Source: a virus. Taken from it: 34,826 bases of DNA. The notes beneath the pieces are model-generated. The model saw nothing but the letters and a program-made list of their open reading frames with translations, ran no database searches and had not been told where the DNA came from. Location: positions 1-34,826 of the IMG/VR virus record IMGVR_UViG_3300024509_000033, one strand, 5' to 3'. Shown piece after piece: positions 1,633 to 21,387 of the stretch (position 1 is the first letter of the stretch; each line of letters starts with the position of its first letter). The position numbers and the translations under genes were made by a program.

Positions 1633-2467
1633 AAAAACAACAGTAACTGCTCATGACCGTGACAAAATTATTGAACTGTCTAAAACTATGGGCATACCCG
1701 AAATTTGTACTCTAATGAATAAGAGCGAGGCTCAAGTACGAAGAGTTATTAATCAGAACGATGTAATGCTTCGTGCTAATAGAAAAATAGCCTCACTCAA
1801 TGAGCAAGAGCAGCAAATCGCCCAAGACATTAAGAAAACCAAGGCTTGGCAGCAACTAACAGAAGAGCTTTCGCCCAATGAGTTGCTTTATTATGAAGAA
1901 AAGTACGCTCAGTATATGGCGCAGTTCAAAGATGATGTGCTAGTGACTGAGCAGACACAAATTTCTTTGCTAATCAAGTTTGAAATCATGATGCATAGGA
2001 ACGCAAAGGCAAAATATAGCGCTGCTCAAGAGATCGCCCGACTAGTTTCTATGCAAAATGACTTTTTGGCGACCTTTCCAGACAGATCTGCCATGTCTGA
2101 AGACGATAGAGAGCATGTTTTATCACTTGAAGCTCAAATTCAATCGGCAAAACAGGCCGAACAGGCAAGGTCTGGCGAGTTTATCAAGCTTGAAGAGAAG
2201 CATCAGGCACTACTTAAAGATCTAAAAGCTACTAGAGAGCAGCGAGTAACAAGAATTGAGTCGTCAAAACAGAGCTTTTTAGCTATTATCAGACAATTAC
2301 AAGAGGAAGAGAACAAGGAATTGATGGGGCGACACATGGAAATCATGAGACAGGTATCAGAAAAAGAGATGGATAGGCTAGGAGCGCCCCATGTGTATGA
2401 AGATGGCTCGGCAGATTTGCCTATTTTGAATGCGGACACTATAGAAAATCAAAAGGAAGAAGCATGA
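1625..2467 (+). CDS. Terminase small subunit (probable)
   Basis: A 280-aa protein with an N-terminal helix-turn-helix (residues about 8-45, HDRDKIIELSKTMGIPEI and a later SEAQVRRVI). It is followed by a mostly helical body and a strongly charged coiled-coil-like stretch at about 165-250. Small terminases bind the packaging site through such an N-terminal HTH and oligomerise through helices. The assignment relies on this architecture and on the position upstream of the large terminase. No motif is diagnostic by itself. The subunits are separated by a dehydratase and a nuclease gene, which is unusual. The start overlaps the sigma-like gene by 8 bases, and the stop overlaps the next ATG in an ATGA junction. 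Confidence 0.6.
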   Translation: MARKTTVTAHDRDKIIELSKTMGIPEICTLMNKSEAQVRRVINQNDVMLRANRKIASLNEQEQQIAQDIKKTKAWQQLTEELSPNELLYYEEKYAQYMAQFKDDVLVTEQTQISLLIKFEIMMHRNAKAKYSAAQEIARLVSMQNDFLATFPDRSAMSEDDREHVLSLEAQIQSAKQAEQARSGEFIKLEEKHQALLKDLKATREQRVTRIESSKQSFLAIIRQLQEEENKELMGRHMEIMRQVSEKEMDRLGAPHVYEDGSADLPILNADTIENQKEEA

Positions 2468-3459
2468 AAGCAGTAATTTTTGGCGTTACAGGTCAAGACG
2501 GGTCATATTTAGCTGAATATTTGATACAAAATAACATCAAAGTTGTTGGTGTTACTCGAAGAACATCGTCTGACAACCTATCCAGACTGAAAAATGTCTT
2601 AAACTCATCATTTTTTAGTATTGTTTATGGAGATGTGACTGATTATCACTCGGTTTTGAATATTATTTCTGCCGAACAACCCGATTATATCTTTAATTTA
2701 GCTGCACAATCACATGTTAGGGTGTCTTTTGACCAGCCAATGCTGACTTTTGACTCAGTTGCTGTTGGTTGCTTCAATGTTTTGCAAGCTTTTCGTGATA
2801 GCGCACCATTTTCTAGGTTTTATCAAGCAAGTTCGTCCGAACAATTTGGAAATGCTGTCGAAGATGATGGCACTCAAGACGAAAATACGCCTTTCATACC
2901 AGAAAGTCCTTATGCAGTAGCAAAAGTAGCTGCTCACAACTTCGTAAACTGCTATCGCAACTCATATAATCTACATGCAAGCTGCGGAATTTTGTTTAAT
3001 CATGAAAGTCCACGCAGAGGACACAATTTTGTCACTAGAAAAATCAGTTTGTGGGCAGCAAAGTTCATGTATTGCTATGAAAGAGGTCTTTCATTACCAA
3101 GAATCACTCTTGGAAATCTAAAAGCACGAAGAGATTGGGGTCATGCAGCTGATTATGTTAAGGCAATGAAACTAATTGTCGATCAAGAGAAGCCAGATGA
3201 CTATGTTGTTGCTACAGGATCTACTCATTCAGTAGAAGAATTCCTTGAAGAAGCATGTATTGTTGCAGGAATTGATAATTATCAACAACATGTTGATATA
3301 GATCAGTCTTTGTTTAGACCTTCTGAAGTAAAACACCTTAGAGGAAATCCAACAAAGATTATGGAAGTTACTGGTTGGACTCCCACCGTCACTTTTAGTG
3401 AGTTAGTCAAAGACATGGTTCTTTCTGACTATAAACTTTATGAACAACAAAAAATATAA
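2464..3459 (+). CDS. gmd: GDP-mannose 4,6-dehydratase
   Basis: A 331-aa short-chain dehydrogenase of the extended type, which converts GDP-mannose to GDP-4-keto-6-deoxymannose. That product is the precursor of GDP-fucose, GDP-rhamnose or GDP-perosamine. Residues 7-13 (GVTGQDG) form the nucleotide-binding glycine loop. Other family marks are DVTD (57-60), NLAAQSHV (78-85), the active-site block SSSEQFG (123-129), the catalytic Y150 and K154 in SPYAVAK, and NHESPRRG (179-186). The C-terminal RPSEVKHLRGNP is the GDP-sugar-side signature. All catalytic residues are present and the length is near the family norm. It lies between the terminase genes, joined to the first by an ATGA overlap, so it is expressed with the packaging genes. 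No later-step enzyme such as a GDP-fucose synthase is seen in this window. Confidence 0.92.
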   Translation: MKAVIFGVTGQDGSYLAEYLIQNNIKVVGVTRRTSSDNLSRLKNVLNSSFFSIVYGDVTDYHSVLNIISAEQPDYIFNLAAQSHVRVSFDQPMLTFDSVAVGCFNVLQAFRDSAPFSRFYQASSSEQFGNAVEDDGTQDENTPFIPESPYAVAKVAAHNFVNCYRNSYNLHASCGILFNHESPRRGHNFVTRKISLWAAKFMYCYERGLSLPRITLGNLKARRDWGHAADYVKAMKLIVDQEKPDDYVVATGSTHSVEEFLEEACIVAGIDNYQQHVDIDQSLFRPSEVKHLRGNPTKIMEVTGWTPTVTFSELVKDMVLSDYKLYEQQKI

Positions 3460-6061: not shown

Positions 6062-8203
6062 ATGAGCGATAAAAAAGACTTATTCGTTACTTGGGAAGAA
6101 AATAACTTAGAATCTAAAGAAAAAGCCATTGCTAAGAGCAATAATAATGGCCAAGCAGTTAAGAAGACTGTTGGTACAAGTAGTTATAAAAACATTGAAT
6201 CTCCAAACATTTCTGTTCGTGAAGGCTTTGATCGTAGGGATTACGACTTTTTTAGGCCAAATGAACAAATACCAGTCCGTGATAAAGAAATAATGACGGC
6301 CTGTATGCAAGCTTATGAAAGAATAGGCATTGTTCGCAATACTGTAGATATGATGAGCGAATTTGCTTGCCAAGGAATTGACTTGGTTCACCCAAACCAA
6401 AAAATAGAAAAGTTTTATAAAGAGTGGTTCAAGAAAATTAGAGGTAAAGAAAGAACTGAAAGAATACTAAATCTTTTATATCGTGCAGGAAATGTAATTA
6501 TTAAAAGAGCAAACGCCATATTAAAACCAGAAGAAATAGACATTATCCAAAAGGGTATGGCAGCTGAAACAAAAAAGAATTTTATTAAAAAACCAAAACA
6601 GTCACAAGTTCCTTGGGAATATACTATATATAATCCAACAACAATAGAGGTTTATGGCGAAGAAGTAGCTCCATTTATTGGCCCAAAAGCTTTTAGATTT
6701 GGCGTTAGATTAACAGAAAGTTTTTCTAGAAAAATAAAAAATCCAAAATCCGATATAGAAAAAGAAATTGTAAAATCATTACCTAGTGAAATGGATGATT
6801 ATGCAGTTCGTGGCGGATTTTTAATTCCGTTAGATGTAAATAAAACTGTAGCTTTATACTACAAGCGTGATGATTGGCAAGTATGGGCAAAGCCGATGTT
6901 ATATGCTTTGCTAAAAGATTTGCAAATGTTGGAAAAAATGAAATTAGCTGATTTAGCAGCTTTAGATGGAGCTATTAGCCATATCAGACTTTGGAAGCTT
7001 GGATCGCTTGAACATCGTATTTTGCCAACCGAAGAAGCAATTAATCGTCTTGCTGACATGCTATTAAATAATGTCGGTGGCGGAAGCATGGATCTTATTT
7101 GGGGTCCAGAAATTGATGTTGTTGAAACTAAAACTGATTTAGTTAATTTTTTAGGCGAAGAAAAATATAAGCCTATTTTAAATTCTATTTATGCCGGACT
7201 TGGTATTCCGCCATCACTTACTGGTTTGCCAGGAGGATCTGGCTTTTCAAATAATTATATAAGTTTGAGAACTCTTATAGAAAGACTTCAATATGGCCGT
7301 GATGTAGTTGCTGAATTTTGGGAAAAAGAAGTAAAGCTTGTTCAAATGGCTATGGGATTTAAAGCACCAGCCCAAATAGTATTTGACCATCAAACTTTAT
7401 CAGATGAAGCAGCAGAAAAGAGATTGTTGATTGAACTTGCCGATAGAGATCTTATTAGTGAGGAAGCGGTTCAAGAAAGATTTAATCTTATACCAGAAAT
7501 TGAAAGTGTTCGACTTAGAAGAGAAAGAGATTATAGAAAACAAGATATGCTACCTCCAAAGGCATCTCCTTTCCATAGTCCGCAGCATAAAGAAGCTGTT
7601 GAAAAAATATTTACACAACTTGGAATTTTGCCACCAGAATATTTTGGCATAAAAGCTCCGGCATCTTCTATAGCTCCGGCGCAAAATCCAACTAATCAAA
7701 ATGATGAGCAACCAAAAGGTGAATCTGGACAGGGAAGACCTCTCGGAAAAACTGATAGCTTGCCAAGAAAAAGAAAAGTGATTAAGCCAGCTATGGCATC
7801 TGATTTTATAGATAGGCTTAATTGGGCAGAGCAAACACAAAAGACTATAGCAGAAATAGTCCAGCCAGCTTATTTAAAGAGTATAAACAAGAAAACACTA
7901 AGAGATCTTTCTGTTGCACAAATAAATGAGTTTGAACATATTAAGTTTGCTCTATTATGCAAAACAGAACCAGATCAAAAAATTAGTAAGACTTTTATTT
8001 TTAATTCATTAAAAGAGAAACTTGAAATACCTACTGATGTAGAAGACTTCTTTAAAACTTGTATGGCTAAGTATTTAGAAAAAACTGGCAATTTACCAAC
8101 ATCAGAAATAACTAGAAAAATACAGGCTTCTGTATATGCGATGCACACAATCGGATTACAAAAAACCGATAATATTGATAACTCTTCATCGCAGATATCA
8201 TGA
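6062..8203 (+). CDS. Portal protein
   Basis: A 713-aa protein in the usual place after the large terminase. It would form the dodecameric channel at one capsid vertex for DNA entry and tail attachment. The most telling segment is LGIPPSLTGLPGGSGFSNNY (about 378-397), followed by RTLIERL and VVAEFWEKEV. This is the conserved wing/stem pattern of portals, where a helix precedes the Pro-Pro and Gly-rich loop. The N-terminal 60 residues are polar, and residues about 520-590 (Pro/Gln/Lys-rich, QNDEQPKGESGQGRPLGKTD) look disordered. A ribosome site AGGA lies eight bases before the ATG. The C-terminal coding end overlaps the next reading frame by 68 bases. No homologue search was possible, but position and motif agree. 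Confidence 0.85.
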   Translation: MSDKKDLFVTWEENNLESKEKAIAKSNNNGQAVKKTVGTSSYKNIESPNISVREGFDRRDYDFFRPNEQIPVRDKEIMTACMQAYERIGIVRNTVDMMSEFACQGIDLVHPNQKIEKFYKEWFKKIRGKERTERILNLLYRAGNVIIKRANAILKPEEIDIIQKGMAAETKKNFIKKPKQSQVPWEYTIYNPTTIEVYGEEVAPFIGPKAFRFGVRLTESFSRKIKNPKSDIEKEIVKSLPSEMDDYAVRGGFLIPLDVNKTVALYYKRDDWQVWAKPMLYALLKDLQMLEKMKLADLAALDGAISHIRLWKLGSLEHRILPTEEAINRLADMLLNNVGGGSMDLIWGPEIDVVETKTDLVNFLGEEKYKPILNSIYAGLGIPPSLTGLPGGSGFSNNYISLRTLIERLQYGRDVVAEFWEKEVKLVQMAMGFKAPAQIVFDHQTLSDEAAEKRLLIELADRDLISEEAVQERFNLIPEIESVRLRRERDYRKQDMLPPKASPFHSPQHKEAVEKIFTQLGILPPEYFGIKAPASSIAPAQNPTNQNDEQPKGESGQGRPLGKTDSLPRKRKVIKPAMASDFIDRLNWAEQTQKTIAEIVQPAYLKSINKKTLRDLSVAQINEFEHIKFALLCKTEPDQKISKTFIFNSLKEKLEIPTDVEDFFKTCMAKYLEKTGNLPTSEITRKIQASVYAMHTIGLQKTDNIDNSSSQIS

Positions 8204-8885
8204 ACTAATAGATAATGTTCAGCATATTTATAGATGTAGAGTTTTCTTTAAACACCATCCTATTATTTATGTTTTATGGGCAGACCCAGAGATTTCCAAA
8301 AAATGGATTTTAGATGAATTACAAAAAAATAATTTAATACATAAAGTTATTTATAGAAATACAGTAGACAAAACAGGAAGTACAAGTTTTTATGAAAGTA
8401 TTAATTTTAGAAAAGCGTTACCAATTATTTTTGATGAAAACGGAAATGACTGTTTTGTAATTGTTCATGCCACAGACACTAAAGTAAGTCCTATGGCTTA
8501 TAATATTTTTGAAAAACAAATTAACCAAGGTTTTGATGCTTCTGTTTTTAAGTGGAATTCAGAAATGTTAAACGCATGGAAAACTGCTGTTTTTGCAGTT
8601 ACATCTAATCAAGATGTTTGGCCACCATTAATAAATAATAATAACCCAGATGTTTTAGAAGCTGCTTGGCCAAAAAGTTTGAATTATAATAATTTAAAAA
8701 AAGTGAAAGTTAATGGATTTTTTGATAATTTTTATTTTGATTCAAAAAATACATCTGAGTTTTTAGCTCAGTTTGCAGACAAACCTCAAATTCAAATAGA
8801 TACAATTTCTTTGTGCATAAGCGGTTATGTTCCATTGTATAAAAGAATACTCAATTGGTTTGGTGTATTTCTTAAAAAGAGGTGA
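8136..8885 (+). CDS. Unknown protein, possibly GT-A glycosyltransferase-like
   Basis: A 249-aa protein inserted between portal and protease. The reading frame opens at ATG 8136, 68 bases inside the portal gene. The conserved-looking part begins at KKPIILITLHRRYHELIDNV, so the true start may be nearer 8175 (a TTG), but neither site has a good ribosome site. It shows alternating strands and helices (IILITLHRR, IIYVLWADPE, CFVIVHATDTK). The middle carries FVIVHATDTKVSPMAY, whose D-x-x/D-like spacing recalls the nucleotide-sugar loop of GT-A enzymes. The C-terminus is hydrophobic and ends in Lys/Arg. I do not recognise a family with confidence. The sugar-related genes elsewhere in the window make a glycosyltransferase-like role possible. 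Confidence 0.6.
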   Translation: MRCTQSDYKKPIILITLHRRYHELIDNVQHIYRCRVFFKHHPIIYVLWADPEISKKWILDELQKNNLIHKVIYRNTVDKTGSTSFYESINFRKALPIIFDENGNDCFVIVHATDTKVSPMAYNIFEKQINQGFDASVFKWNSEMLNAWKTAVFAVTSNQDVWPPLINNNNPDVLEAAWPKSLNYNNLKKVKVNGFFDNFYFDSKNTSEFLAQFADKPQIQIDTISLCISGYVPLYKRILNWFGVFLKKR

Positions 8886-10823: not shown

Positions 10824-11813
10824 ATGAAGACCCCAACTCCAGAAATGGTTAAACTTGCTGAACAGGCTGGTAGCAACAATTATGAAGTTGCTGTAGCTGC
10901 TCAGAAGGAACTTGCCAAGGCTCTTACCCTTCCTTTGCGCCAAGGCGTTTTGAAGGGCGATATTCTTGGAAACATCTTTGAACAGGTTGTTTTCCAGCCA
11001 GGTACTGCTGTTGAATTCCCTCTCGATTTCCTGTCTCCAGGTTCTGAGAAGGACTTCATCGCTTACACCATTCCTTCCCAAGGTCGTATTCCAGAACGCC
11101 ATGTTGAAGGCGATTATCTGACTGTACAGACCTATGAAGTTGGTGCTTCCATCGACTTCTCCCTTAAGTATCTTCGTGATGCTCGTTGGGATATTGTTGG
11201 TCGTGCAATGCAGACCCTTGAAGCTTCTTTTACCCGCAAGAACAATAATGATGGTTGGCATGTAATCATCGCTGCTGGTAAAGGTAGGAACCTTCTTGTG
11301 ACTGACAGCGTTGCTACCGCTGGTTACTTCAGCAAGAGGCTTATTGCCTTGATGAAGACCGTGATGCGTAGGAATGCTGGTGGTAACAGCACTTCCATTA
11401 ATCGTGGAAAGCTTACCGATCTGTATGTATCTCCAGAAGCTATGGAAGATATTCGCACTTGGGATATTAACGAAGTTGATGACTTCACCCGCCGAGAAAT
11501 TTTTGTTTCTCAGGAAGGTGGTTTATCTCAGGTTTTCGGCGTAAATCTTCATGAGATTGATGAACTTGGTGTTGGTCAGGAATACCAGCTTTACTACACC
11601 TCTACCTTGTCTGGCTCTCTGTCTGGCAAGAGCGAGTTGGTCGTTGGTCTTGACCTTGAGAAGCGTGACAGCTTCGTTATGCCTGTTCGTCAGGAAATCG
11701 AGATCTTTGAAGATCCTACTTTCCATCGTCAGCGTAGGATGGGTATGTACGGTTTTGGTGAACACGGTTTCGCTGTTCTCGATAACCGCCGTGTACTCTT
11801 GGGCGGTTTCTAA
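10824..11813 (+). CDS. Major capsid protein (HK97 fold)
   Basis: A 329-aa protein in the canonical position after protease and decoration genes. The N-terminal helix (about 3-35) is followed by GVLKGDILGNIFEQ. The middle carries RIPERHVEGDYLTVQTYEV and IDFSLKYLRDARWDIVGRAM, which fit the E-loop/spine-helix region of HK97-type coat proteins. The C-terminal part LTDLYVSPEAMEDIR resembles the A-domain, and the end (RMGMYGFGEHGFAVLDNRRV) the final P-domain strand. The ribosome site GAGGAGA lies 11 bases before ATG 10824. Codon choice favours C-ending and G-ending codons more than later genes, suggesting very high expression. A strong terminator follows 18 bases after the stop. Confidence 0.85.
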   Translation: MKTPTPEMVKLAEQAGSNNYEVAVAAQKELAKALTLPLRQGVLKGDILGNIFEQVVFQPGTAVEFPLDFLSPGSEKDFIAYTIPSQGRIPERHVEGDYLTVQTYEVGASIDFSLKYLRDARWDIVGRAMQTLEASFTRKNNNDGWHVIIAAGKGRNLLVTDSVATAGYFSKRLIALMKTVMRRNAGGNSTSINRGKLTDLYVSPEAMEDIRTWDINEVDDFTRREIFVSQEGGLSQVFGVNLHEIDELGVGQEYQLYYTSTLSGSLSGKSELVVGLDLEKRDSFVMPVRQEIEIFEDPTFHRQRRMGMYGFGEHGFAVLDNRRVLLGGF

Positions 11814-11831: not shown

Positions 11832-11864
11832 AAAAAGGGCAGGGCGAAAGCTCTGCCTTTTTTT
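11832..11864 (+). terminator. Rho-independent terminator after the capsid gene
   Basis: The stem GGCAGGGC (11838-11845), loop GAAA and arm GCTCTGCC (11850-11857) form an 8-bp stem with one G-U pair. It is capped by a GNRA-type tetraloop and followed by seven T (11858-11864). The A-run before the stem would extend pairing with those T. It would end transcripts of the head operon just after the capsid gene. Confidence 0.9.
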
Positions 11865-11885
11865 ATTGCATTCCCGATTTCTTCC

Positions 11886-11891
11886 TATAAT
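11886..11891 (+). promoter_or_regulatory. Candidate -10 element for the glycan/fibre operon
   Basis: A perfect TATAAT lies directly after the terminator and 19 bases before the ATG of the next gene. No good -35 element is found: TTGCAT at 11866-11871 would leave only 14 bases of spacing, and TTTTAT at 11861 would leave 19. The AGGAGG ribosome site begins at 11900, so the transcript leader would be only about 12 bases. It may be read by the phage sigma-like factor, which could need only a -10-type element, as T4 gp55 does. Confidence 0.4.
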
Positions 11892-11910
11892 ATATTTTTA
11901 GGAGGAAAAC

Positions 11911-12912
11911 ATGGCAGTATGTAATGCTAGATCAACAGAATTTAGAGTTGGAACAAAACCCTTAACAAATTTAGTTTGCTTTCAAAATAAATTATTTCCA
12001 AGCAATGTAAATTATACAGATTTTGTCGGAAAAGTTGTATCTCTTGAAAAAGAAAATAGAAATTCATATTTTTATAGTTTTTTAGAGCAAGCATCTTTGC
12101 TAGATTCTTACGAATACTTTATTTTTGTAGAAAATTCTCAAAAGCTATCTCCGCATGTTTATAACAATTTATCAACTTGGAAACCGTTGCTTAGATATCA
12201 AGTTGATTTGGCTGTTTTAAAAATATGTAATGGTCCAATGCCAGAAAGTAAATCATCAGAATACTCAACTACTTCATATATAGAAGAAACTACGACCGGC
12301 CCATTTTTAATCTCTTCAAGGCATTTAAAAAAGTTTATTAAAAAAGTACATGATAGAAATTCAATAATTCAAACATTAAATCAATTTTTAAAATTTTGTA
12401 ATACTGTTTGTTTTTGGCCGAAAGTTAATTTAGCAACAGATAATATAAAACTTGAACATCAATTTTTAGAATTTCCAATAGTGTTTCCTGACGGTGTTCC
12501 AAATAGAAGTTTTAATAATGACTATATAGATTTAGCCAGTTTGATAGTTAATAATAATATTATATACATTGGTTCTTCCGCAGCAGATTTGTTAATATTA
12601 GCACAAGCTGGATGTAAAGTTATTTCTTATAAACCAAAAAATAAAATTGATTTTATAGATAATAAAATTTGGTTACAAAGATTTGGTCTTGAGGATAGAG
12701 TTACTTTTGTTGATGATAACTTTATTCCAGACAATGAAAATTATGCGGTTGTATACTCAACTCATCAAGACATAGAAAATTCAATTAAAACAAGATACTT
12801 AGCTTATTTCCCTTTTAGCGTGTTTCTTAACAGAAGTATTTCTTTGCAAGAAGCTCAAGTTATGAATATATCATTACAAAACTACACTTCAAATATAAAG
12901 GTTAAAGTATGA
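11911..12912 (+). CDS. GT25-like/Rossmann-fold protein of the glycan cassette
   Basis: A 333-aa AT-rich gene with a strong AGGAGG site just upstream. The N-terminal half (about 36-145) resembles family-25 glycosyltransferases: VVSLEKENR near the start, YEYFIFVENS at 67-76, where active relatives have an acidic EDD-type motif, and GPFLISSRHLKKFI at 130-143. The C-terminal half (about 214-270) reads like a Rossmann strand-loop-helix: NNIIYIGSSAADLLILAQAG, then CKVISYKP and WLQRFGLEDRVTFV, resembling FkbM-type methyltransferase motifs. Key acidic residues of the N-terminal domain seem lost, so that half may only bind substrate. It shares a 4-base ATGA overlap with the DxD glycosyltransferase gene. 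Function in glycan assembly is inferred from context and from weak motifs. Confidence 0.5.
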   Translation: MAVCNARSTEFRVGTKPLTNLVCFQNKLFPSNVNYTDFVGKVVSLEKENRNSYFYSFLEQASLLDSYEYFIFVENSQKLSPHVYNNLSTWKPLLRYQVDLAVLKICNGPMPESKSSEYSTTSYIEETTTGPFLISSRHLKKFIKKVHDRNSIIQTLNQFLKFCNTVCFWPKVNLATDNIKLEHQFLEFPIVFPDGVPNRSFNNDYIDLASLIVNNNIIYIGSSAADLLILAQAGCKVISYKPKNKIDFIDNKIWLQRFGLEDRVTFVDDNFIPDNENYAVVYSTHQDIENSIKTRYLAYFPFSVFLNRSISLQEAQVMNISLQNYTSNIKVKV

Positions 12913-13835
12913 TAAATAATGATGTTGCAATAATAATGTATTATTGGAATCATTATAAAAGAAAATCCTTATTAAATAATTTTTATATATGTCATAATAA
13001 TCTATCAAAATATAATGCTATAATTATACCGATAGAAATTTCTACAAATGGTAGTTTTGATTTGCCATTTCCAGGAACTATAAAATTTCAAACAGATCAG
13101 TTATTATGGCAGAAGGAAAGGGTTATTAATTATGTTTGTCAAAAATTAACGGATGATATAAAATATGTTTCTTTTATTGATGGAGATATTCTTTTTTCAG
13201 AAGAAGACTGGATAGAACAAGCAAAACAAAAAATTGATAATAAAGAAAACTTATTTATTCAACCGTTCTCTTCTGTTCATTATTTACCTAGAAATCATAC
13301 TAAATACAATGGATTTTATACATTTAAACACGATTCTATTTCAAAACAAGTCGTTGTTTCTGGCGGAAAAGATGGTTATAAAAAAACGCTATTTTCAGAA
13401 GACTTTGTTTATGGAAATCCAGGTATAGCTTGGATAACCAAAAAAGAAACATTATTAAATAACCCTCTATATGATAAATGCATAGTTGGCGGAGGAGACA
13501 CAATAAATATAATCAAGTGGTTAGATTTAGAAGAAACAAAAAGTATACCATTTATAAAGTATAAAAAATTTAAAAACAACTTTATTGACGATTTATTAAC
13601 TTTGCCCAAAAACAATATTGATATTGATTATATAGATCAGCCGGTTTTTCATCTTAATCATGGAAATAAAATAGATAGACAATATGCATCTAGATTTGAT
13701 TTATTAGATAATAATGATTTTTCATTGCAAAAAGATCTTGCTATAGAACAGGGTATATATAGATATGTCGGAAATAGTAATTTACTAAAAGATATTAATA
13801 AATTTTTTAATGATAGAAATGAGGATTTAGAATGA
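12909..13835 (+). CDS. GT-A fold glycosyltransferase
   Basis: A 308-aa protein with a clear D-x-D metal and nucleotide-sugar site, FIDGDILF (D91, D93), ending a beta strand as expected in GT-A enzymes. Later marks are GNPGIAWITKKETL (169-182), CIVGGGDT (191-198) and the C-terminal FHLNHGNKIDRQYASR, a pattern seen in galactosyl- or glycosyltransferase domains in which a His closes the metal site. It would transfer a sugar from a nucleotide donor to an acceptor not visible here. It overlaps the neighbouring genes by 4 bases on both sides (ATGA), so the three genes of the cassette are translationally coupled. No membrane anchor is seen, so it probably acts in the cytoplasm. Confidence 0.75.
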   Translation: MINNDVAIIMYYWNHYKRKSLLNNFYICHNNLSKYNAIIIPIEISTNGSFDLPFPGTIKFQTDQLLWQKERVINYVCQKLTDDIKYVSFIDGDILFSEEDWIEQAKQKIDNKENLFIQPFSSVHYLPRNHTKYNGFYTFKHDSISKQVVVSGGKDGYKKTLFSEDFVYGNPGIAWITKKETLLNNPLYDKCIVGGGDTINIIKWLDLEETKSIPFIKYKKFKNNFIDDLLTLPKNNIDIDYIDQPVFHLNHGNKIDRQYASRFDLLDNNDFSLQKDLAIEQGIYRYVGNSNLLKDINKFFNDRNEDLE

Positions 13836-14395
13836 ACGATTGTTATATAGTTTTAGGAACATATAGATCTGGAACTAGCGTTATATCAAAAATAATTAGT
13901 TCTTTGGGCATAAGTATGTCTGAAAAAAGTCCACAATCTGATAATGCATTGTGGTATCCAACTGGTAGTTTTAATGATAAATTTTCAAATTATATTTCAT
14001 TAAATACATCTACATATTGGAAATTAAAAAAAGAAAGCTGCGTTTTTAATAAAATGGGAATAAGATCTTTTGATCTTTTAAGAAAAGGTGTTTTTGCAAA
14101 ATTAATTAATGATTGTGATTTAAACATTGGTTTAATATGGTCTATGAGAAATATAGAAAAATCTTATCAAGAATATGTTTCTTTACTTGGTAGACAAGCT
14201 AATCCAGATACCATAGAAAAACAGCATGAAATTTGTCAAAATATATTCAATTCTTTTAATGGTAAAAAAATAACTATAAATTATTCAGATTTGATGCAAA
14301 ATACTAATCAGATTGCAAATCAATTAGCAGATTTTTGTGGTGTATCATATATAGATGGATGCACTACAGGAATAACTCCAAAATACTTGGAATAA
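13832..14395 (+). CDS. Short sulfotransferase-family protein
   Basis: A 187-aa P-loop protein. YIVLGTYRSGTSVISK (5-20) is the 5'-phosphosulfate-binding loop of PAPS-dependent sulfotransferases, and LIWSMRNIEKSYQEY (101-115) matches the 3'-phosphate-binding segment (R106, S111). GSFNDKF and ITINYSDLM are further family-like segments. The usual acceptor-site region is short, so the protein is smaller than most cellular sulfotransferases, which are about 250-350 aa. If active, it would transfer sulfate from PAPS to a sugar or protein hydroxyl. A related P-loop kinase role cannot be excluded. It overlaps the glycosyltransferase gene by 4 bases and ends 3 bases before the ATG of the giant fibre gene. 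Confidence 0.7.
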   Translation: MNDCYIVLGTYRSGTSVISKIISSLGISMSEKSPQSDNALWYPTGSFNDKFSNYISLNTSTYWKLKKESCVFNKMGIRSFDLLRKGVFAKLINDCDLNIGLIWSMRNIEKSYQEYVSLLGRQANPDTIEKQHEICQNIFNSFNGKKITINYSDLMQNTNQIANQLADFCGVSYIDGCTTGITPKYLE

Positions 14396-14398
14396 ACA

Positions 14399-17300
14399 AT
14401 GCATTTCAGCAAAAAACCATCGAGAATACAAGATCAAGATGATTTTGTAGGAGTTCCCGCTTCTGGACAAGTAATTAAGTTCGATGGAACTAATTTTGTT
14501 CCAGGCGTAATTACTGGTTCACAAGGTTTTCAAGGAAATCAAGGAACGCAGGGTTCACAGGGTTCGCAAGGAAATCAAGGAAATCAAGGGTTTCAAGGCG
14601 AACAAGGAATTATAGGTGTTCAAGGTTCTCAGGGTTTTTCATTTGGTTTTTCTGAATCTTTATCAACATTAACAAAAACAATCGGATTAAAAACATTAGT
14701 AATTTCTAATATATTATCATTTAGGGCTGGCGTAAGAGTAAGAATAGTTGACATTACTAATAATGATGATTTTTTAGAAGGAAAAGTAACTTCTACAAAT
14801 CCAGTAACAAATGAAATAACTGTAGATGTTGATTATGTAACAGGAACTGGAAGCGCAAGTATATGGGATGTTAATATAACAGGCGAGCTTGGCTATCAAG
14901 GCTATCAAGGTATAAATGCCCCATCAATTAAATATATATATAGCACTTCTATCTCCGGTGTTCCAACACCATCTCAGTTAAGATTCAACAACCTCACTAT
15001 ATCTTCTGCAACAACATTAAGTTTAAGTGCTTATGATATTAATGGAAATGAAGTTCATGAGATATATAGTCTTTTTGACAATTCTACAAATTCTACAAAA
15101 TCAATATTGTTTATTCAATCAATAACAAATCCTTCAAAGTTTACAGTATTTAAAATAACATCTTCTACTACAGTTAATGGAACATATGGTTCTTTTAATG
15201 TTTCTCATGTTCAATCTAGTGCTGGGTTTTCTTTAATCGCAAATGAATTAATTTCTGTATCTTTTGTTTTAGTTGGCGATCAAGGTTTTCAAGGTTCGCA
15301 AGGTTTTCAAGGGTTGCAAGGAAATCAAGGGTTTCAAGGTAATCAAGGATTTCAAGGTAGACAGGGTTTTCAAGGAAACCAAGGTAGCCAAGGTTTTCAA
15401 GGGAATCAAGGTTCTCAAGGTAGTCAAGGATCTCAAGGATCTCAAGGAAACCAAGGATCTCAAGGAGAACAAGGCAATCAAGGATTTCAAGGTTTTCAAG
15501 GTAACCAAGGAATACAAGGCTCACAAGGAATACAAGGTTCACAAGGTTATCAAGGAAATCAAGGATTTCAAGGAAACCAAGGTATTCAAGGTAGTCAAGG
15601 ACAGACTGGAGCAGGAGTTACCATACAGGGATCTGATACTTGGGAAAATATATTTAATAATGAAACTTCTGGTGCTGTACTTGGTGATATGTGGCTACTT
15701 ACATCAACAGCACAAGGAACTGCTTCTCAAGCATGTCCAAATCCATCTAATGGTTCCGCTGCAATAGGTGACGGTGTTGTTTATACAGGATCAAGTCCTG
15801 TTTATTGGCAAAATGTTGGTCCTATTAAAGGATCTCAAGGACAACAAGGATTTCAAGGTAACCAAGGTTTTCAAGGGTCGCAGGGTAACCAAGGTAATCA
15901 GGGTCTTCAAGGCAACCAAGGGTTTCAAGGTAACCAAGGAAATCAAGGTAATCAAGGATTTCAAGGGAATCAAGGTTTATTAGGAAATCAAGGATTACAA
16001 GGCGAGCAGGGTTTTCAAGGAGAACAAGGATCACAGGGTAATCAAGGTTTTCAAGGGGAACAAGGATCACAAGGTGATCAGGGTTTTCAAGGAGAACAAG
16101 GATCACAAGGTGATCAGGGTTTCCAAGGGGAACAAGGTTCACAGGGTGATCAAGGCAATCAAGGTTTCCAAGGGGAACAAGGATCACAAGGTGACCAAGG
16201 TTTCCAAGGAGAACAAGGGTCACAGGGTGATCAGGGTTTCCAAGGGGAACAGGGATCACAAGGTGATCAAGGTAATCAGGGTTTCCAAGGTGAACAAGGG
16301 TCACAGGGTGATCAAGGTAACCAAGGTTTCCAAGGGGAACAGGGATCACAAGGTGACCAAGGTAACCAAGGTTTTCAAGGCGAACAAGGGTCACAAGGTG
16401 ACCAAGGTAACCAAGGTTTCCAAGGAGAACAAGGGTCACAGGGTGATCAAGGTAACCAAGGTTTTCAAGGGGAACAGGGATCACAAGGTGATCAAGGTAG
16501 TCAGGGTTTCCAAGGGGAACAAGGTTCACAAGGTGAACAAGGTTTTCAAGGAAATCAAGGTGGCCAAGGATATCAGGGATCAACTGGTAGCTTTGGTGGC
16601 GTAACAGTTGAATATAAAATAGACACAAATAATTACTCAATCAACGACCCAGGTGACAATTATATAAGATTTAATAACGCTTCTCTTGCATCAGCTACGC
16701 ATGTTATAATTGATGATAATCCAAATAATGCAAACATAGATCTTTCGCTATTCTTAAATACAATCTCTGCTTCAACAAGCACTATAAAAGGTCATTTTAA
16801 ATTATCTAAGAAAAATGACTCTACAGTATTTGCACTTTATACTATAAGCAATTCCTCAGAAGAAGAACCTAGTTTTTTTGATGTTACAATTTCTTATTTA
16901 TCTGGAAGCGGAACATTTTCTAATGATGATGAAGTATTACTTACTTTTGCAAGAACTGGAGATAAGGGCGATTCTGGATATCAAGGATTCCAAGGTAACC
17001 AAGGTTTTCAAGGTACTCAAGGATCACAGGGCAATCAAGGCAACCAAGGTTTACAAGGAAGTCAAGGATTACAGGGTAATCAAGGTTTTCAAGGAAACGC
17101 CGGTGTTAGTGGCGGTTTAGTTTTATTTTTTGATACTACCGGTGGATCATATCCGCAAACTGGAGAATTATTAACGAGTGTAAATGCCGGAACACAAACC
17201 ACAATTACAACTGGTAGTTTAAATATAGCAAATAATTATTTGGTTGGAACATTTACGACTCAAGTTGGCGCTTTAACTTCAACAGTTATAACTTCTGGTG

Positions 17301-20300
17301 TTTGGGAATTAAATTTATATGCACTTTCAAGCACTACTGGCCAAGTGCCGACTATGCATTATGGTATTTATTATGTAGATTCAGATGGCACAAGCAATGA
17401 AACACTAATTATACAAGGTTCATCTTCATCAGCTTCTGCTATTTTAACAACTCAATCATTAGTAGTTTCAGATCTCGTTGTTCCTGCTACAATTTTGCCA
17501 GATTTAACTAAAAGATTGAGAATAAAAATATATGTAAATATAAGACAAAATAATAGTTCTGCCACTTTTGAGTTTCGTGATAATACTCAAACGCATATTC
17601 ATACAACTTTAGTTTCTAATCCAGCAACAGGTCCGCAAGGTTATCAAGGATTGCAAGGACAACAAGGATCACAGGGGCATCAAGGTAATCAAGGTTTTCA
17701 AGGTATACAAGGTTCACAAGGTTCACAAGGTAACCAAGGTTTCCAAGGGCAACAAGGATCACAGGGTAACCAAGGTAATCAAGGTTTTCAAGGGGAACAA
17801 GGGTCACAGGGTGATCAAGGCAATCAAGGTTTCCAAGGTGAACAAGGGTCACAGGGTGACCAAGGTAACCAAGGTTTCCAAGGTGAACAAGGGTCACAGG
17901 GTGACCAAGGTAACCAAGGTTTCCAAGGTGAACAAGGGTCACAGGGTGACCAAGGTAACCAAGGTTTTCAAGGTGAACAAGGTTCACAGGGTGATCAAGG
18001 TAGCCAAGGTTTTCAAGGTGAACAAGGTTCACAAGGTGATCAAGGCAATCAAGGTTTCCAAGGATCACAAGGCCCAGAAATATTTGATTATTTAGGATCT
18101 TATAATAATGGAGTTACCTATTCAGTAGGTCAAGCAGTTACATATGATGGTTCTTTATATGTAATGACAGTTTATATTGGTGCAGCTGGATATATTCCAC
18201 CATCATATCCATCTAATTGGCAGTTAGTTTTAAGCAAAGGTGACCAAGGTTCACAGGGTTTTCAAGGAAATCAAGGTTCTGGCTATCAAGGCAGTCAAGG
18301 AAGTCAAGGTAGTGTAGGTCTTCAAGGTTATCAAGGAGCTTCTATAACAGGACCACAGGGAAGTCAGGGAAGTCAAGGTACAACTGGCGCTACTGGTGCT
18401 GGTGGAGCATTAGGTTATTGGGGATCTTTTTGGTCTACACAAGATCAATTTATAACTACAGCAAATACAGAATATCTTATAACCTACAACAATTCAGACG
18501 CTGATAATAATGGAGTTAGTGTAGTATCTAATTCAAGAATAACATTTGCTTATTCTGGTGTTTATAGCATTATATTTTCTGTACAGTTAGTTAATGCTAA
18601 TGTTCAAATACAAGACGCTAGTATATGGCTTAAAAAGAATGGTTCAAATGTATCTGATACTGATAGCAAGTGGAGTGTTGTAGAAAGCCATGGTGGAACT
18701 GATGGTCATGCTATTGGAACAGTTAATTTTGTTTTAAAACTTAATGCTGGTGATTATCTAGAACTAGCTTGGCAAGCAACTAATACTGATGTTTCTTTAC
18801 AATATGTAGCTGCTGCTTCTCCTGCCCCAGCAATTCCAAGTATTATATTAACAGCTACTCAAGTTTTATATACTCAAGTTGGCCCACAAGGTTATCAAGG
18901 CAACCAAGGAAACAATGGGTCACAAGGTTATCAGGGGTTAACTGGACCTCAAGGAAATCAAGGGTATCAGGGCAATACTGGCTCGCAAGGCAACCAAGGA
19001 AATAATGGGGTACAAGGTAGCCAAGGCTATCAAGGAAATACAGGCTCTACTGGTTCACAAGGCAATCAAGGATATCAAGGTAATACTGGATCACAAGGGT
19101 ATCAAGGATATCAAGGTGCTACTGGATCACAAGGAAATCAAGGTGCAACTGGACCACAAGGTAGTCAAGGATCTATTGGATCACAGGGTAATCAAGGCGC
19201 AACTGGATCACAGGGTAGTCAAGGTTCTACTGGGTCACAAGGAAATCAAGGTGCGACTGGATCACAAGGTAGTCAGGGGTTTCAAGGAAATCAAGGTATT
19301 CAAGGACTAAGAGGTTTTCAAGGATATCAAGGTTTTCAAGGCGTTCAAGGTTCCCAAGGATTTCAAGGCAGTCAGGGGGATCAAGGATCTCAGGGCGATC
19401 AAGGTTATCAAGGAGATCAGGGTAGTCAAGGTGATCAAGGTAGCAATTCATCTCCTGGAGGTTCTCAATATTATTTCCAATATAATGATGGCGCTGGATC
19501 TTTTGCTGGTGCTGTTGGATTAGAATATCAGGCAACTTCTGGAATTGATACCGGAGCTTATGCAACATCAGCAAGTCAAACACCATTAGGAATATTTGGG
19601 GCAAACTCACAAACTGCCAACTTATTAGATTTTAGAAATTCTACTGGAGCTACCACTTATTCTTACTTTGATTATACTGGAAGATTTGTATCAAATCTTG
19701 CAAATAATGCATCTGATGGCGGAGGACAAATTTATCTAGATGGTTCTGGTGGAAATAGAATAGATTTTGGCGCTAATGGATATGCTGCGCCGTCATTCAA
19801 TACAAGAAGTTCTGGAACAAAAATAGTCCTATGGCCAGAAGTTTCCTCTACAACAGTAGATTATGCACTTGGTATAGAAATGAATACCTTGTGGTTTTCT
19901 ATTCCAACTACAACTAATTATTTTAAATGGTATGCCGGAACAACTAATATAGCTACCTTAGAAGCAAATGGATCTTTTAGTATTAATGGATTTATTTCTG
20001 CTGGAGCAAATGCAACTACAAGATCTTTAACAGGAAGTGCGTTTGCTTTATCAAGTGGAGCATTTTCATCTGCCGGAGATGCACAATCAAGAACCGTGAC
20101 TTTAAGATGTTCAACTACCAATGGAACCCAGACAGTAATGACTTCTGATGGATCGGCGCAAGACACATATAATCATTTGTCATTACCTAATGATACAACT
20201 TATGCATTTTCTGCATTAATAGTTGCTAGAAGAACAGATGCAAATGATGAATCTGCTGGTTGGAAGATTGAAGGAGTTATTGATAGAAATGCTACTGCTG

Positions 20301-20476
20301 GAACCACAGCTTTAGTTGGCAGTATAATTATAACTACAATAGGTGGAGATAGTTCTTGGTCTGTTGATGCTGTAGCAGATACTGCATACGGAAGTTTAAA
20401 AATACTTGTTACTGGAGAAGCGTCAAAAACAATAAGATGGGTAGCAAAAGTTGATACAGTTGAGGTAACAGGCTAA
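14399..20476 (+). CDS. Giant mosaic collagen-like fibre protein (Gly-X-Gln)
   Basis: A 2025-aa virion fibre. The N-terminus has GQVIKFDGTNFVPG, a common fibre attachment module. Collagen-like blocks of Gly-X-Gln triplets lie at about 38-83, 293-405, 478-727, 858-902, 1078-1224, 1280-1340 and 1495-1682. Between them sit globular modules: two related beta domains (174-292 and 730-857, the second ending ARTGDKG), a GDMW...W domain (404-477), a beta domain ending THIHTTL (903-1077), a chitin-binding-like CBM5/12 module (1225-1279), and a C1q/TNF-like jelly roll (1340-1494, YSGVYSIIFSVQL). The C-terminal 340 residues form a tail-fibre domain (AFSALIVARRTDANDESAGW). Almost no Pro is found in the triplets. 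It probably forms a long trimeric fibre for cell binding. The start has only a weak GGA upstream, 3 bases after the sulfotransferase stop. Confidence 0.85.
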   Translation: MHFSKKPSRIQDQDDFVGVPASGQVIKFDGTNFVPGVITGSQGFQGNQGTQGSQGSQGNQGNQGFQGEQGIIGVQGSQGFSFGFSESLSTLTKTIGLKTLVISNILSFRAGVRVRIVDITNNDDFLEGKVTSTNPVTNEITVDVDYVTGTGSASIWDVNITGELGYQGYQGINAPSIKYIYSTSISGVPTPSQLRFNNLTISSATTLSLSAYDINGNEVHEIYSLFDNSTNSTKSILFIQSITNPSKFTVFKITSSTTVNGTYGSFNVSHVQSSAGFSLIANELISVSFVLVGDQGFQGSQGFQGLQGNQGFQGNQGFQGRQGFQGNQGSQGFQGNQGSQGSQGSQGSQGNQGSQGEQGNQGFQGFQGNQGIQGSQGIQGSQGYQGNQGFQGNQGIQGSQGQTGAGVTIQGSDTWENIFNNETSGAVLGDMWLLTSTAQGTASQACPNPSNGSAAIGDGVVYTGSSPVYWQNVGPIKGSQGQQGFQGNQGFQGSQGNQGNQGLQGNQGFQGNQGNQGNQGFQGNQGLLGNQGLQGEQGFQGEQGSQGNQGFQGEQGSQGDQGFQGEQGSQGDQGFQGEQGSQGDQGNQGFQGEQGSQGDQGFQGEQGSQGDQGFQGEQGSQGDQGNQGFQGEQGSQGDQGNQGFQGEQGSQGDQGNQGFQGEQGSQGDQGNQGFQGEQGSQGDQGNQGFQGEQGSQGDQGSQGFQGEQGSQGEQGFQGNQGGQGYQGSTGSFGGVTVEYKIDTNNYSINDPGDNYIRFNNASLASATHVIIDDNPNNANIDLSLFLNTISASTSTIKGHFKLSKKNDSTVFALYTISNSSEEEPSFFDVTISYLSGSGTFSNDDEVLLTFARTGDKGDSGYQGFQGNQGFQGTQGSQGNQGNQGLQGSQGLQGNQGFQGNAGVSGGLVLFFDTTGGSYPQTGELLTSVNAGTQTTITTGSLNIANNYLVGTFTTQVGALTSTVITSGVWELNLYALSSTTGQVPTMHYGIYYVDSDGTSNETLIIQGSSSSASAILTTQSLVVSDLVVPATILPDLTKRLRIKIYVNIRQNNSSATFEFRDNTQTHIHTTLVSNPATGPQGYQGLQGQQGSQGHQGNQGFQGIQGSQGSQGNQGFQGQQGSQGNQGNQGFQGEQGSQGDQGNQGFQGEQGSQGDQGNQGFQGEQGSQGDQGNQGFQGEQGSQGDQGNQGFQGEQGSQGDQGSQGFQGEQGSQGDQGNQGFQGSQGPEIFDYLGSYNNGVTYSVGQAVTYDGSLYVMTVYIGAAGYIPPSYPSNWQLVLSKGDQGSQGFQGNQGSGYQGSQGSQGSVGLQGYQGASITGPQGSQGSQGTTGATGAGGALGYWGSFWSTQDQFITTANTEYLITYNNSDADNNGVSVVSNSRITFAYSGVYSIIFSVQLVNANVQIQDASIWLKKNGSNVSDTDSKWSVVESHGGTDGHAIGTVNFVLKLNAGDYLELAWQATNTDVSLQYVAAASPAPAIPSIILTATQVLYTQVGPQGYQGNQGNNGSQGYQGLTGPQGNQGYQGNTGSQGNQGNNGVQGSQGYQGNTGSTGSQGNQGYQGNTGSQGYQGYQGATGSQGNQGATGPQGSQGSIGSQGNQGATGSQGSQGSTGSQGNQGATGSQGSQGFQGNQGIQGLRGFQGYQGFQGVQGSQGFQGSQGDQGSQGDQGYQGDQGSQGDQGSNSSPGGSQYYFQYNDGAGSFAGAVGLEYQATSGIDTGAYATSASQTPLGIFGANSQTANLLDFRNSTGATTYSYFDYTGRFVSNLANNASDGGGQIYLDGSGGNRIDFGANGYAAPSFNTRSSGTKIVLWPEVSSTTVDYALGIEMNTLWFSIPTTTNYFKWYAGTTNIATLEANGSFSINGFISAGANATTRSLTGSAFALSSGAFSSAGDAQSRTVTLRCSTTNGTQTVMTSDGSAQDTYNHLSLPNDTTYAFSALIVARRTDANDESAGWKIEGVIDRNATAGTTALVGSIIITTIGGDSSWSVDAVADTAYGSLKILVTGEASKTIRWVAKVDTVEVTG
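15275..15617 (+). repeat. Collagen-like coding block, Gly-X-Gln triplets
   Basis: A long run of 9-bp GGN-NNN-CAA/CAG codon triplets coding Gly-X-Gln, with X mostly Phe, Asn, Ser, Glu or Ile. It is irregular at the DNA level with no long perfect unit. It forms the second rod segment of the 2025-aa fibre and ends in GQTGAG before a globular module. Confidence 0.85.
16010..16540 (+). repeat. Tandem array A: thirteen 36/45-bp units in the fibre gene
   Basis: Thirteen in-frame units each begin GGTTTYCAAGG and code GFQGEQGSQGDQ (36 bp) or the same with an extra GNQ/GSQ triplet (45 bp). The order of lengths is 36,36,36,45,36,36,45,45,45,45,45,45,36. Units differ mainly by silent changes. Alternate units share variants such as GGGGAACAGGGATCACA versus GAACAAGGGTCACAGG, suggesting a higher-order unit of about 90 bp in the second half. 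It is coding sequence, not a CRISPR array. Confidence 0.92.
17783..18052 (+). repeat. Tandem array B: six 45-bp units, three identical
   Basis: Six in-frame 45-bp units code GFQGEQGSQGDQG(N/S)Q. The three central copies (17828-17872, 17873-17917, 17918-17962) are identical over all 45 bases including silent sites. Flanking copies differ at a few wobble positions. The unit matches those of array A closely. Perfect silent-site identity points to recent duplication or gene conversion. Confidence 0.92.
18881..19446 (+). repeat. Collagen-like coding block with mixed triplets
   Basis: About 62 Gly-X-Y triplets after the C1q-like module. Unlike earlier blocks, many Y positions are Thr, Ser or Asn (GAT, GNT, GST, GNN), mixed with Gly-X-Gln. 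Short units around GSQGNQGATGSQG recur in 19120-19270. It is the last rod segment before the C-terminal domain of the 2025-aa fibre. Confidence 0.85.
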
Positions 20477-21387
20477 TGGCTATAGCAATTAACAATAAAA
20501 CAGCAGTTATATCTGGCGTAAATTCTTTAACCGATTCGACTGGTGGCTCTTGGGTTACTAATACTGCTTCTGGCAGACTTACACTAGAAAGCGGAGTGCC
20601 AGTATCCACTTCTGATCAGACAAGCAAAACAACAATCTATTACACACCATATAATGGTGATCGTATCAGTCTTTATGATGGAACTAATTGGTCTACTTAT
20701 ACATTTACGCAACGGTCTTTGGCTTTAGGAACTCTTATATCAGCTAGAAACTACGATGTTTTTTTGTACAACAACGCCGGAACGCTAACTCTAGAATTAA
20801 CAGCGTGGACTAATGATACAACGAGGGCCACATCATTAACCATGACCAACGGTGTGTATTTAAAAACAGGTGCATTAACTAGAAGATACTTGGGAACAAT
20901 TCGCACGACTTCTACCACTACTACGGAAGATTCTGCAACCAAAAGATTGGTTTGGAATTTTAATAATAGAGTTTCCAAGAATATTTATGTTTACGAGACT
21001 ACTGGTGCTTGGACTTATACTACAGCAGCTTGGAGATACGCCAATAATAATTCAAATAACAAAATAGAATTTGTAGCCGGAATTGCTTTAGATTCAGTAT
21101 CTTGCAACTTAACTGTAAATACTTATGCAACAACGGCCATTTCTGCTTATTATCCAAGTGCTGCTTTAAATACAACTTCAGGAATACCAACTTATACTTC
21201 AAGTGGCCAAGGCTATGCCACCGGAACTTTGACTTGGTTTCATCAAAGGCATAGCAATATGAGTTCTATGCCACAAACTGGCTATAATTATATCGCATGG
21301 CTTGAATACTCTGGTAGTGCAACAGGAACTATAAATGTTGCTGGTGCAAACGAGGCAAGTAAAATGTTGGGAGTGTGGATATGTTAA
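20476..21387 (+). CDS. Tail fibre/receptor-binding-type structural protein
   Basis: A 303-aa beta-rich protein, starting in a TAATG overlap with the stop of the giant fibre gene. The core carries RLTLESGVPVSTSDQTSKTT, YYTPYNGDRISLYDGTNW and RNYDVFLYNNAGTLTLEL, followed by RRYLGTIRTTSTTTTEDS and KRLVWNFNNRV. This series is a module I recognise from many phage tail-fibre or tail-spike proteins of environmental phages. Trp/Tyr-rich strands run to the C-terminus. No signal peptide or catalytic motif is seen. It likely attaches to or caps the fibre encoded just upstream, and the overlap suggests coupled translation. Its exact place in the virion is unknown. Confidence 0.72.
   Translation: MAIAINNKTAVISGVNSLTDSTGGSWVTNTASGRLTLESGVPVSTSDQTSKTTIYYTPYNGDRISLYDGTNWSTYTFTQRSLALGTLISARNYDVFLYNNAGTLTLELTAWTNDTTRATSLTMTNGVYLKTGALTRRYLGTIRTTSTTTTEDSATKRLVWNFNNRVSKNIYVYETTGAWTYTTAAWRYANNNSNNKIEFVAGIALDSVSCNLTVNTYATTAISAYYPSAALNTTSGIPTYTSSGQGYATGTLTWFHQRHSNMSSMPQTGYNYIAWLEYSGSATGTINVAGANEASKMLGVWIC

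What the first reader, a model, noticed from the sequence alone, without database searches (positions are those of the whole stretch)
11911..14398. Glycosyltransferase-sulfotransferase cassette coupled to a giant fibre gene
Three genes with ATGA overlaps (a GT25-like/Rossmann protein, a DxD glycosyltransferase and a short PAPS-type sulfotransferase) end 3 bases before the 2025-aa fibre gene. They share one promoter-like site and one strong ribosome site, so they would be made with the fibre. Seen directly: motifs, overlaps and spacing. Known: sulfotransferases use PAPS and DxD enzymes use nucleotide sugars. Inferred: the phage builds sulfated glycans on its own fibres. Sulfated phage virion glycans would be unusual.
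Basis: partly seen in the sequence, partly recalled or inferred. Interest (0 to 1): 0.72.

Follow-up and report, generated by a model that had tools for sequence, protein, structure and literature searches.

The report
Sugar-and-sulfate enzyme genes beside phage fibre
An uncultured tailed phage carries three overlapping genes, including a probable sugar-transferring and a probable sulfate-transferring enzyme, immediately before its giant collagen-like fibre gene; they look like a swappable glycan-modification cassette, but whether they decorate the phage itself or the host surface cannot be told from sequence.

Summary
In detail: three ATGA-overlapping genes (A 11911-12912, B 12909-13835, C 13832-14395) follow the capsid-gene terminator and end 3 bases before a 2025-aa collagen-like fibre gene. 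C is a short PAPS-type sulfotransferase (RSGTS loop; an orthologue passes the PF13469 cut-off; best solved fold tyrosylprotein sulfotransferase). B is a probable GT-A glycosyltransferase (invariant DxD; only sub-threshold Pfam hits). A is unidentified; 'GT25-like' is not supported.

The trio sits in the same slot in three phage genotypes (capsid protein 100, 97, 91% identical to the window's), though its proteins are only 43-61% identical between them. It is absent from all 32 next-nearest loci (75-80% capsid identity), where a DUF6171-like protein precedes an equally giant fibre. More distant cousins carry another cassette there, with a GT25-like enzyme and an FkbM methyltransferase. The capsid-fibre interval is thus a recurrent, exchangeable slot.

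Decoration of the phage's own fibre is my favoured target (about 0.42), host-surface modification close behind. No fibre sequence signature separates trio-bearing from trio-less phages. Sulfated virion glycans remain untested. New variant of a known kind; moderate interest.

The parts
10824..11813 (+). Major capsid protein, upstream neighbour and anchor for finding relatives
   Evidence: PHROG major head protein E 6.8e-7; 104 relatives in viral contigs, 80 kept
11841..11859 (+). Terminator-like hairpin with T run between the capsid gene and the trio
   Evidence: 1 found, 0.9 expected in shuffles, so weak alone; similar hairpin plus T run at the same place in all relatives aligned
11866..11891 (+). 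Promoter-like TTGCAT-N14-TATAAT; the TATAAT box is shared by the three trio genotypes
   Evidence: not found by the consensus scan, whose hits equal chance
11900..11905 (+). Shine-Dalgarno AGGAGG of gene A
   Evidence: sequence; kept in L027 and L033
11911..12912 (+). Gene A, 333 aa, unidentified; 43-51% identical between genotypes
   Evidence: no family hit; model pLDDT 43 not usable
12909..13835 (+). Gene B, 308 aa, probable GT-A glycosyltransferase with invariant DGD (residues 91-93)
   Evidence: Glycos_transf_2 E 0.003 in orthologue L027, below cut-off
13832..14395 (+). Gene C, 187 aa, PAPS-type sulfotransferase (Sulfotransfer_3) with YRSGTS loop
   Evidence: PF13469 24.5 bits here, 31.5 in orthologue L027, cut-off 27; model pLDDT 77.9; Foldseek best match 3ap1 E 2.5e-6
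14387..14398 (+). TTGGAATAAACA: weak ribosome-site-like end of gene C that overlaps the run-in to the fibre gene
   Evidence: trio-less relatives have TTTGGAGAAAATAAA before the fibre ATG
14399..20476 (+). 2025-aa collagen-like fibre protein
   Evidence: Pfam Collagen E 1.9e-130; 846 residues in uninterrupted G-X-Y runs
2464..3459 (+). GDP-mannose 4,6-dehydratase, possible nucleotide-sugar supply
   Evidence: PF16363 E 7e-107; kept in trio-less relatives

Best explanation
The trio is an exchangeable glycan-modification operon expressed late together with the collagen-like fibre gene. B (GT-A type) adds a sugar from a nucleotide-sugar donor, C transfers sulfate from host-made PAPS to that sugar, and A is an unidentified partner. 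The most likely acceptor is the phage's own fibre or a neighbouring tail protein, made at the same time. Shown: gene order, overlaps, co-conservation, family and fold of C, motifs of B. Inferred: one transcript, enzyme activity, order of steps, substrate.
For: C: PF13469 above cut-off in an orthologue, invariant PAPS loop, fold match to PAPS enzymes. B: invariant DxD kept as DxD in a relative 26% identical, weak GT2 score. Trio kept as a unit, ending at the fibre, in three genotypes. Position after a terminator in the structural operon. In cousins the same capsid-fibre slot holds a different cassette with a GT25-like enzyme and an FkbM methyltransferase, again before a collagen-like fibre. Alleles of A and B are saturated at synonymous sites while the backbone is not, as for one gene just beyond the fibre. 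The family makes or handles nucleotide sugars. Precedent: glycans on capsid and tail-tube subunits of mycobacteriophages (Freeman 2023, as cited in PMC12619734).
Against: 32 loci of close relatives lack the trio; those that extend far enough have giant collagen-like fibres. No fibre composition signature. Co-variation with the fibre is expected also if the target is the host receptor. B and A lack confident family assignment. No transcript or protein data.
Confidence: 0.42

Rival explanations
1. The cassette modifies the host surface glycan (O-antigen or capsule) late in infection, adding a sugar and a sulfate, so that progeny do not stick to debris or rival phages are excluded. It is exchanged with the fibre because both concern the receptor.
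For: Glycosyltransferases in the fibre-containing hypervariable region of pelagimyophages are read this way by their discoverers (PMC7029224). GT-A plus sulfotransferase pairs suit polysaccharide modification (general knowledge). Trio is fast-diverging and exchanged like receptor-linked genes. Trio absent from relatives with intact fibres.
Against: Expression with late virion genes is late for protecting the cell. No membrane helix in A, B or C, although cytoplasmic action on precursors needs none. No flippase or polymerase partner seen in the window.
Confidence: 0.33
2. C sulfates protein side chains directly (tyrosine in the fibre or another tail protein), independently of B.
For: Best solved folds for C are tyrosylprotein sulfotransferases. 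The fibre has tyrosines at X positions of the collagen repeats.
Against: Fold matches at 12-14% identity do not fix a substrate; other sulfotransferases match too (CurM, Stf0, SULT). Tyrosine is not enriched in trio-bearing fibres.
Confidence: 0.13
3. The enzymes act elsewhere: on phage DNA, a small host metabolite, or not at all (captured metabolic genes).
For: Phage glycosyltransferases also glycosylate DNA (stated in PMC12619734); the role of phage sulfotransferases is called unclear in PMC10580990.
Against: Operon position at the fibre, exchange for other cassettes at the same slot, and retention of all three reading frames under coding constraint.
Confidence: 0.12

Closest known systems
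Phage-encoded Sulfotransfer_3 (PF13469) proteins, e.g. Synechococcus phages S-SRM01 and S-SCSM1, OM43 phage genomes, uncultured Caudovirales phages
   Same: Same Pfam family or fold; short forms of 183 aa exist.
   Different: No sequence relative of C found in 50,697 phage records. I did not examine the gene neighbourhoods of those phage sulfotransferases, so whether any sits beside a fibre is not known here.
Glycosyltransferases in the host-recognition hypervariable region of pelagimyophages
   Same: Glycosyltransferases beside tail-fibre genes in a fast-changing region (PMC7029224).
   Different: No sulfotransferase is mentioned there, and the authors infer host O-chain modification.
Virion glycosylation of mycobacteriophages (Freeman 2023, known here through PMC12619734)
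   Same: Phage-coded glycosyltransferases decorate structural proteins.
   Different: Capsid and tail-tube subunits, not a collagen-like fibre; sulfate is not mentioned in the passage read; original paper not held.
Tyrosylprotein sulfotransferases (TPST1/2)
   Same: Best solved fold matches of C, E 2.5e-6.
   Different: 12-14% identity; C is about 100 residues shorter; substrate unknown.
GT25 / collagen galactosyltransferases (COLGALT, Mimivirus L230; from general knowledge)
   Same: Sugar-transferring enzyme linked to collagen-like proteins; a GT25-like gene does occupy the same slot in cousins L075, L079, L081.
   Different: No GT25 domain in the window trio; one lysine in 846 collagen-run residues, so no hydroxylysine-type acceptor.
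Hypothetical protein XaC1_205 of Xanthomonas phage XaC1 (WNA15848.1)
   Same: Only phage-record relative of B: 28% identity over 86%, same DxD and HG motifs.
   Different: Not beside a fibre or a sulfotransferase in its annotation.

Membership tests
PAPS-dependent sulfotransferase, Sulfotransfer_3 PF13469 (gene C) | Profile score above the curated cut-off (27 bits) | tested here: met
   Met by orthologue L027 (31.5 bits); window copy 24.5 and L033 26.2 fall just below
PAPS-dependent sulfotransferase, Sulfotransfer_3 PF13469 (gene C) | 5'-phosphosulfate-binding loop (RSGTS-type) | tested here: met
   YRSGTS at residues 11-16 invariant in the three orthologues
PAPS-dependent sulfotransferase, Sulfotransfer_3 PF13469 (gene C) | 3'-phosphate-binding Arg and Ser | tested here: inconclusive
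   Arg 106 invariant (RN/RD), but no Ser at the canonical distance
PAPS-dependent sulfotransferase, Sulfotransfer_3 PF13469 (gene C) | Sulfotransferase fold | tested here: met
   Model pLDDT 77.9; best 13 PDB matches are sulfotransferases, followed by P-loop kinases
PAPS-dependent sulfotransferase, Sulfotransfer_3 PF13469 (gene C) | Transfer of sulfate from PAPS | not testable with these tools
   needs an enzyme assay
GT-A glycosyltransferase (gene B) | DxD metal- and nucleotide-sugar-binding motif after a hydrophobic strand | tested here: met
   FIDGD/FVDGD in three orthologues, DAD in the XaC1 relative
GT-A glycosyltransferase (gene B) | Curated family score above cut-off | tested here: not met
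   Glycos_transf_2 18.0 bits against 23.3 in L027; window copy only MGS_GT 12.5 against 27
GT-A glycosyltransferase (gene B) | GT-A fold | not tested
   No hit for A in three orthologues; PF01755 does match a gene of the cousins' cassette in L079, 24.2 bits against 24
Collagen galactosyltransferase-type fibre modification | Lysine (hydroxylysine) acceptors in the collagen repeats | tested here: not met
   1 Lys in 846 residues of G-X-Y runs
Phage virion glycosylation system | Glycosyltransferase gene linked to a structural gene | tested here: met
Phage virion glycosylation system | Glycan present on a virion protein | not testable with these tools
   needs mass spectrometry of virions or co-expressed fibre

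The most novel reading that the evidence does not exclude
A phage lineage keeps a dedicated, exchangeable slot between its capsid and collagen-like fibre genes for enzymes that decorate its own fibre, and one branch makes a sulfated fibre glycan (or sulfated fibre residues), which would be a sulfated phage virion protein of a kind I found no report of.
Probability: 0.22. Interest if true: 0.8.

Novelty: new variant of a known kind. Interest (0 to 1): 0.48.

Why it matters
Sulfotransferase genes turn up in aquatic phages and their role is called unclear in the literature read (PMC10580990). A sulfotransferase locked in an operon with a probable glycosyltransferase and a fibre gene narrows the question to two testable targets: the phage's own fibre or the host glycan. 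If the fibre is the target, virions would carry a host-supplied negative charge on their adhesin, which could change adsorption and sensitivity to salt.

Tried and rejected
GT25 or collagen-galactosyltransferase reading of the window trio: no domain, almost no lysine acceptors. Methyltransferase reading of gene A: a pLDDT-43 model best matches class I methyltransferases over about 100 residues, E 0.0026 at best, too weak to use; a profile comparison with the FkbM domain of the cousins' cassette gives nothing (probability 0.3%). Fibre acceptor signature by composition: none. Phage-made PAPS: no APS kinase in nine records, with the control positive in 12 of 14 genomes. Second sulfotransferase in trio-less relatives: none in the records searched. 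Cellular source of C: none found by the pattern scan of 84,980 species genomes. Of B: two remote relatives only, in an unclassified bacterial bin and a Nitrosotalea-labelled bin, both on contigs under 5 kb, with no usable family name. Promoter by consensus scan: no better than chance.

Full report
WHAT IS THERE. The window is a virus contig of 34,826 bases. It runs terminase (3888-6020), a 713-aa protein (6062-8203, portal by position only), capsid (10824-11813), the trio, then collagen-like fibre and tail genes. The three genes are at the stated coordinates, overlap by ATGA twice, and the last stops 3 bases before the fibre ATG. They are poor in G+C (25-27%), against 34-46% in the upstream structural genes and 39% in the fibre.

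TRANSCRIPTION AND TRANSLATION. A terminator-like hairpin follows the capsid gene. The consensus promoter scan is uninformative (20 sites, 21.1 expected). All three genotypes that carry the trio keep a TATAATAYATT-type box just after the hairpin and a Shine-Dalgarno before gene A. In the window alone that box is not rarer than chance (10 matches with up to one mismatch, 6.0 expected). In the trio phages the fibre has only a weak ribosome site inside the last codons of C (TTGGAATAAACAATG), where trio-less relatives have TTTGGAGAAAATAAAATATG, so fibre translation may depend on that of C. That trio and fibre share a transcript is inferred.

WHAT THE PROTEINS ARE. Gene C scores 24.5, 31.5 and 26.2 bits for PF13469 in the three orthologues, against a cut-off of 27. 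It has an invariant YRSGTS loop and a usable model (pLDDT 77.9) whose best solved matches are tyrosylprotein sulfotransferases, E 2.5e-6, 12-14% identity; P-loop kinases match less well. Viral matches include sulfotransferases of Synechococcus phage S-SCSM1 and uncultured Caudovirales phages. The serine of the 3'-phosphate motif is not in its usual place. Gene B has DGD at 91-93, GGGD at 194-197 and HLNHG at 248-252, with the core residues kept in a relative 26% identical, and sub-threshold Glycos_transf_2 and Galactosyl_T scores: a probable GT-A enzyme outside named Pfam families. Gene A has no hit in Pfam, NCBIfam or PHROGs and no meaningful PDB sequence match, and its model is not usable. 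No stretch in A, B or C is hydrophobic enough for a clear membrane helix.

RELATIVES. The capsid protein was the anchor (slot read). (a) 21 contigs at 91-100% capsid identity, in three genotypes, have the trio so far as they reach; L026 and L031 show only the start of A and L018 ends within B. Many may come from one sampling series, so they are not independent. (b) 32 loci at 75-80% have no trio. An 83-95-aa DUF6171-like protein (E 4e-4, below cut-off) stands there instead, followed by a collagen-like fibre with a similar N-terminus (MHFQRNITRIQDQDDF against MHFSKKPSRIQDQDDF). Seven of these records have no PF13469 match. (c) At 63-64%, three loci (L075, L079, L081) carry another cassette: a 325-aa-type protein, a TPR protein with an FkbM methyltransferase domain (PF05050 E 8e-11 and 3e-15 in the two tested) and a GT25-like enzyme (PF01755 24.2 bits against a cut-off of 24 in L079, below it in the other two), then a collagen-like fibre; a fragment, L070, shows its start. 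The capsid-fibre interval is therefore a recurrent site for glycan-type enzymes, the strongest new evidence for a link with the fibre.

EVOLUTION. Between the window and the L027 genotype, capsid, terminase and portal are 97, 92 and 90% identical, but A, B and C 49, 58 and 55%. Synonymous differences at identical residues are at the saturation level in A (0.43 observed, 0.41 expected) and B (0.35, 0.37), slightly below it in C (0.26, 0.36), and clearly below it in capsid, terminase and GDP-mannose dehydratase. The simplest reading is that the cassette alleles are older than the backbone and are swapped by recombination, as gene 21375-21905 beyond the fibre also seems to be. Coding constraint remains, since third positions vary most.

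PATHWAY CONTEXT. The window has GDP-mannose 4,6-dehydratase (E 7e-107), kept in trio-less relatives. The related 221-kb contig G001 also has an NTP-transferase, several glycosyltransferases, a CmcI-type methyltransferase and a DegT-type protein; the trio-less G007 has counterparts of the NTP-transferase and several glycosyltransferases. No APS kinase was found, so PAPS would be the host's.

MECHANISM AND RIVALS. I favour a late operon in which B adds a sugar and C sulfates it, on the fibre or a neighbour (0.42). Host-envelope modification (0.33) fits almost as well and is the published reading for glycosyltransferases near pelagimyophage fibres. Direct protein sulfation (0.13) is suggested by the TPST-like fold, but that match does not fix the substrate. 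Nothing in the fibre composition separates trio-bearing from trio-less phages; this comparison was of collagen-run composition only, with three trio genotypes.

NOVELTY. Phage sulfotransferases, phage glycosyltransferases near fibres and phage virion glycosylation are each known. No paper in the library searched was found to report sulfated phage virions (most subscription journals are absent). The combination and the recurrent slot appear new, hence 'new variant of a known kind'.

CAVEATS. The contigs are metagenomic and no host is known. G001 appears to hold one genome plus part of a related one, since about 70 kb of gene order recurs at mostly 55-97% protein identity, so its gene list is a union. 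Models and profiles built from three sequences are rough.

Noticed in passing
L079:10441-16070, L075:11054-15441, L081:11116-15808: A different cassette (325-aa-type protein, TPR plus FkbM methyltransferase, GT25-like enzyme) occupies the same capsid-fibre slot in cousins with 63-64% capsid identity, ahead of a collagen-like fibre.
   Followed up: partly
L041:11088-11339 and L138:6506-6871: A DUF6171-like CxxC protein stands between capsid and fibre in all trio-less close relatives; the trio-bearing contig G001 has a DUF6171 homologue at a distant place instead, as if it had been displaced.
   Followed up: partly
L136-L139 against L143-L146 (IMGVR_UViG_3300024509_000007): The 221-kb contig repeats about 70 kb of gene order with diverged proteins: it looks like one phage genome of roughly 150 kb joined to part of a related one, rather than a true 221-kb genome.
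   Followed up: no
window 8136-8885: 249-aa ORF between the portal-position gene and the next structural gene, overlapping both; faster diverging (71%) than its neighbours (85-90%) and without a family.
   Followed up: no
window 955-1632: 225-aa protein with a sub-threshold Sigma70 region 2 match (E 1.7e-4): a possible phage late sigma factor that could read the TATAAT-type box before the trio.
   Followed up: no
window 26285-28498: A second collagen-like protein with a carbohydrate-binding CBM_5_12 match, possibly a further receptor-binding fibre.
   Followed up: no
window 151-741: 196-aa DUF6445 protein (E 9e-12) on the opposite strand at the left edge of the window.
   Followed up: no
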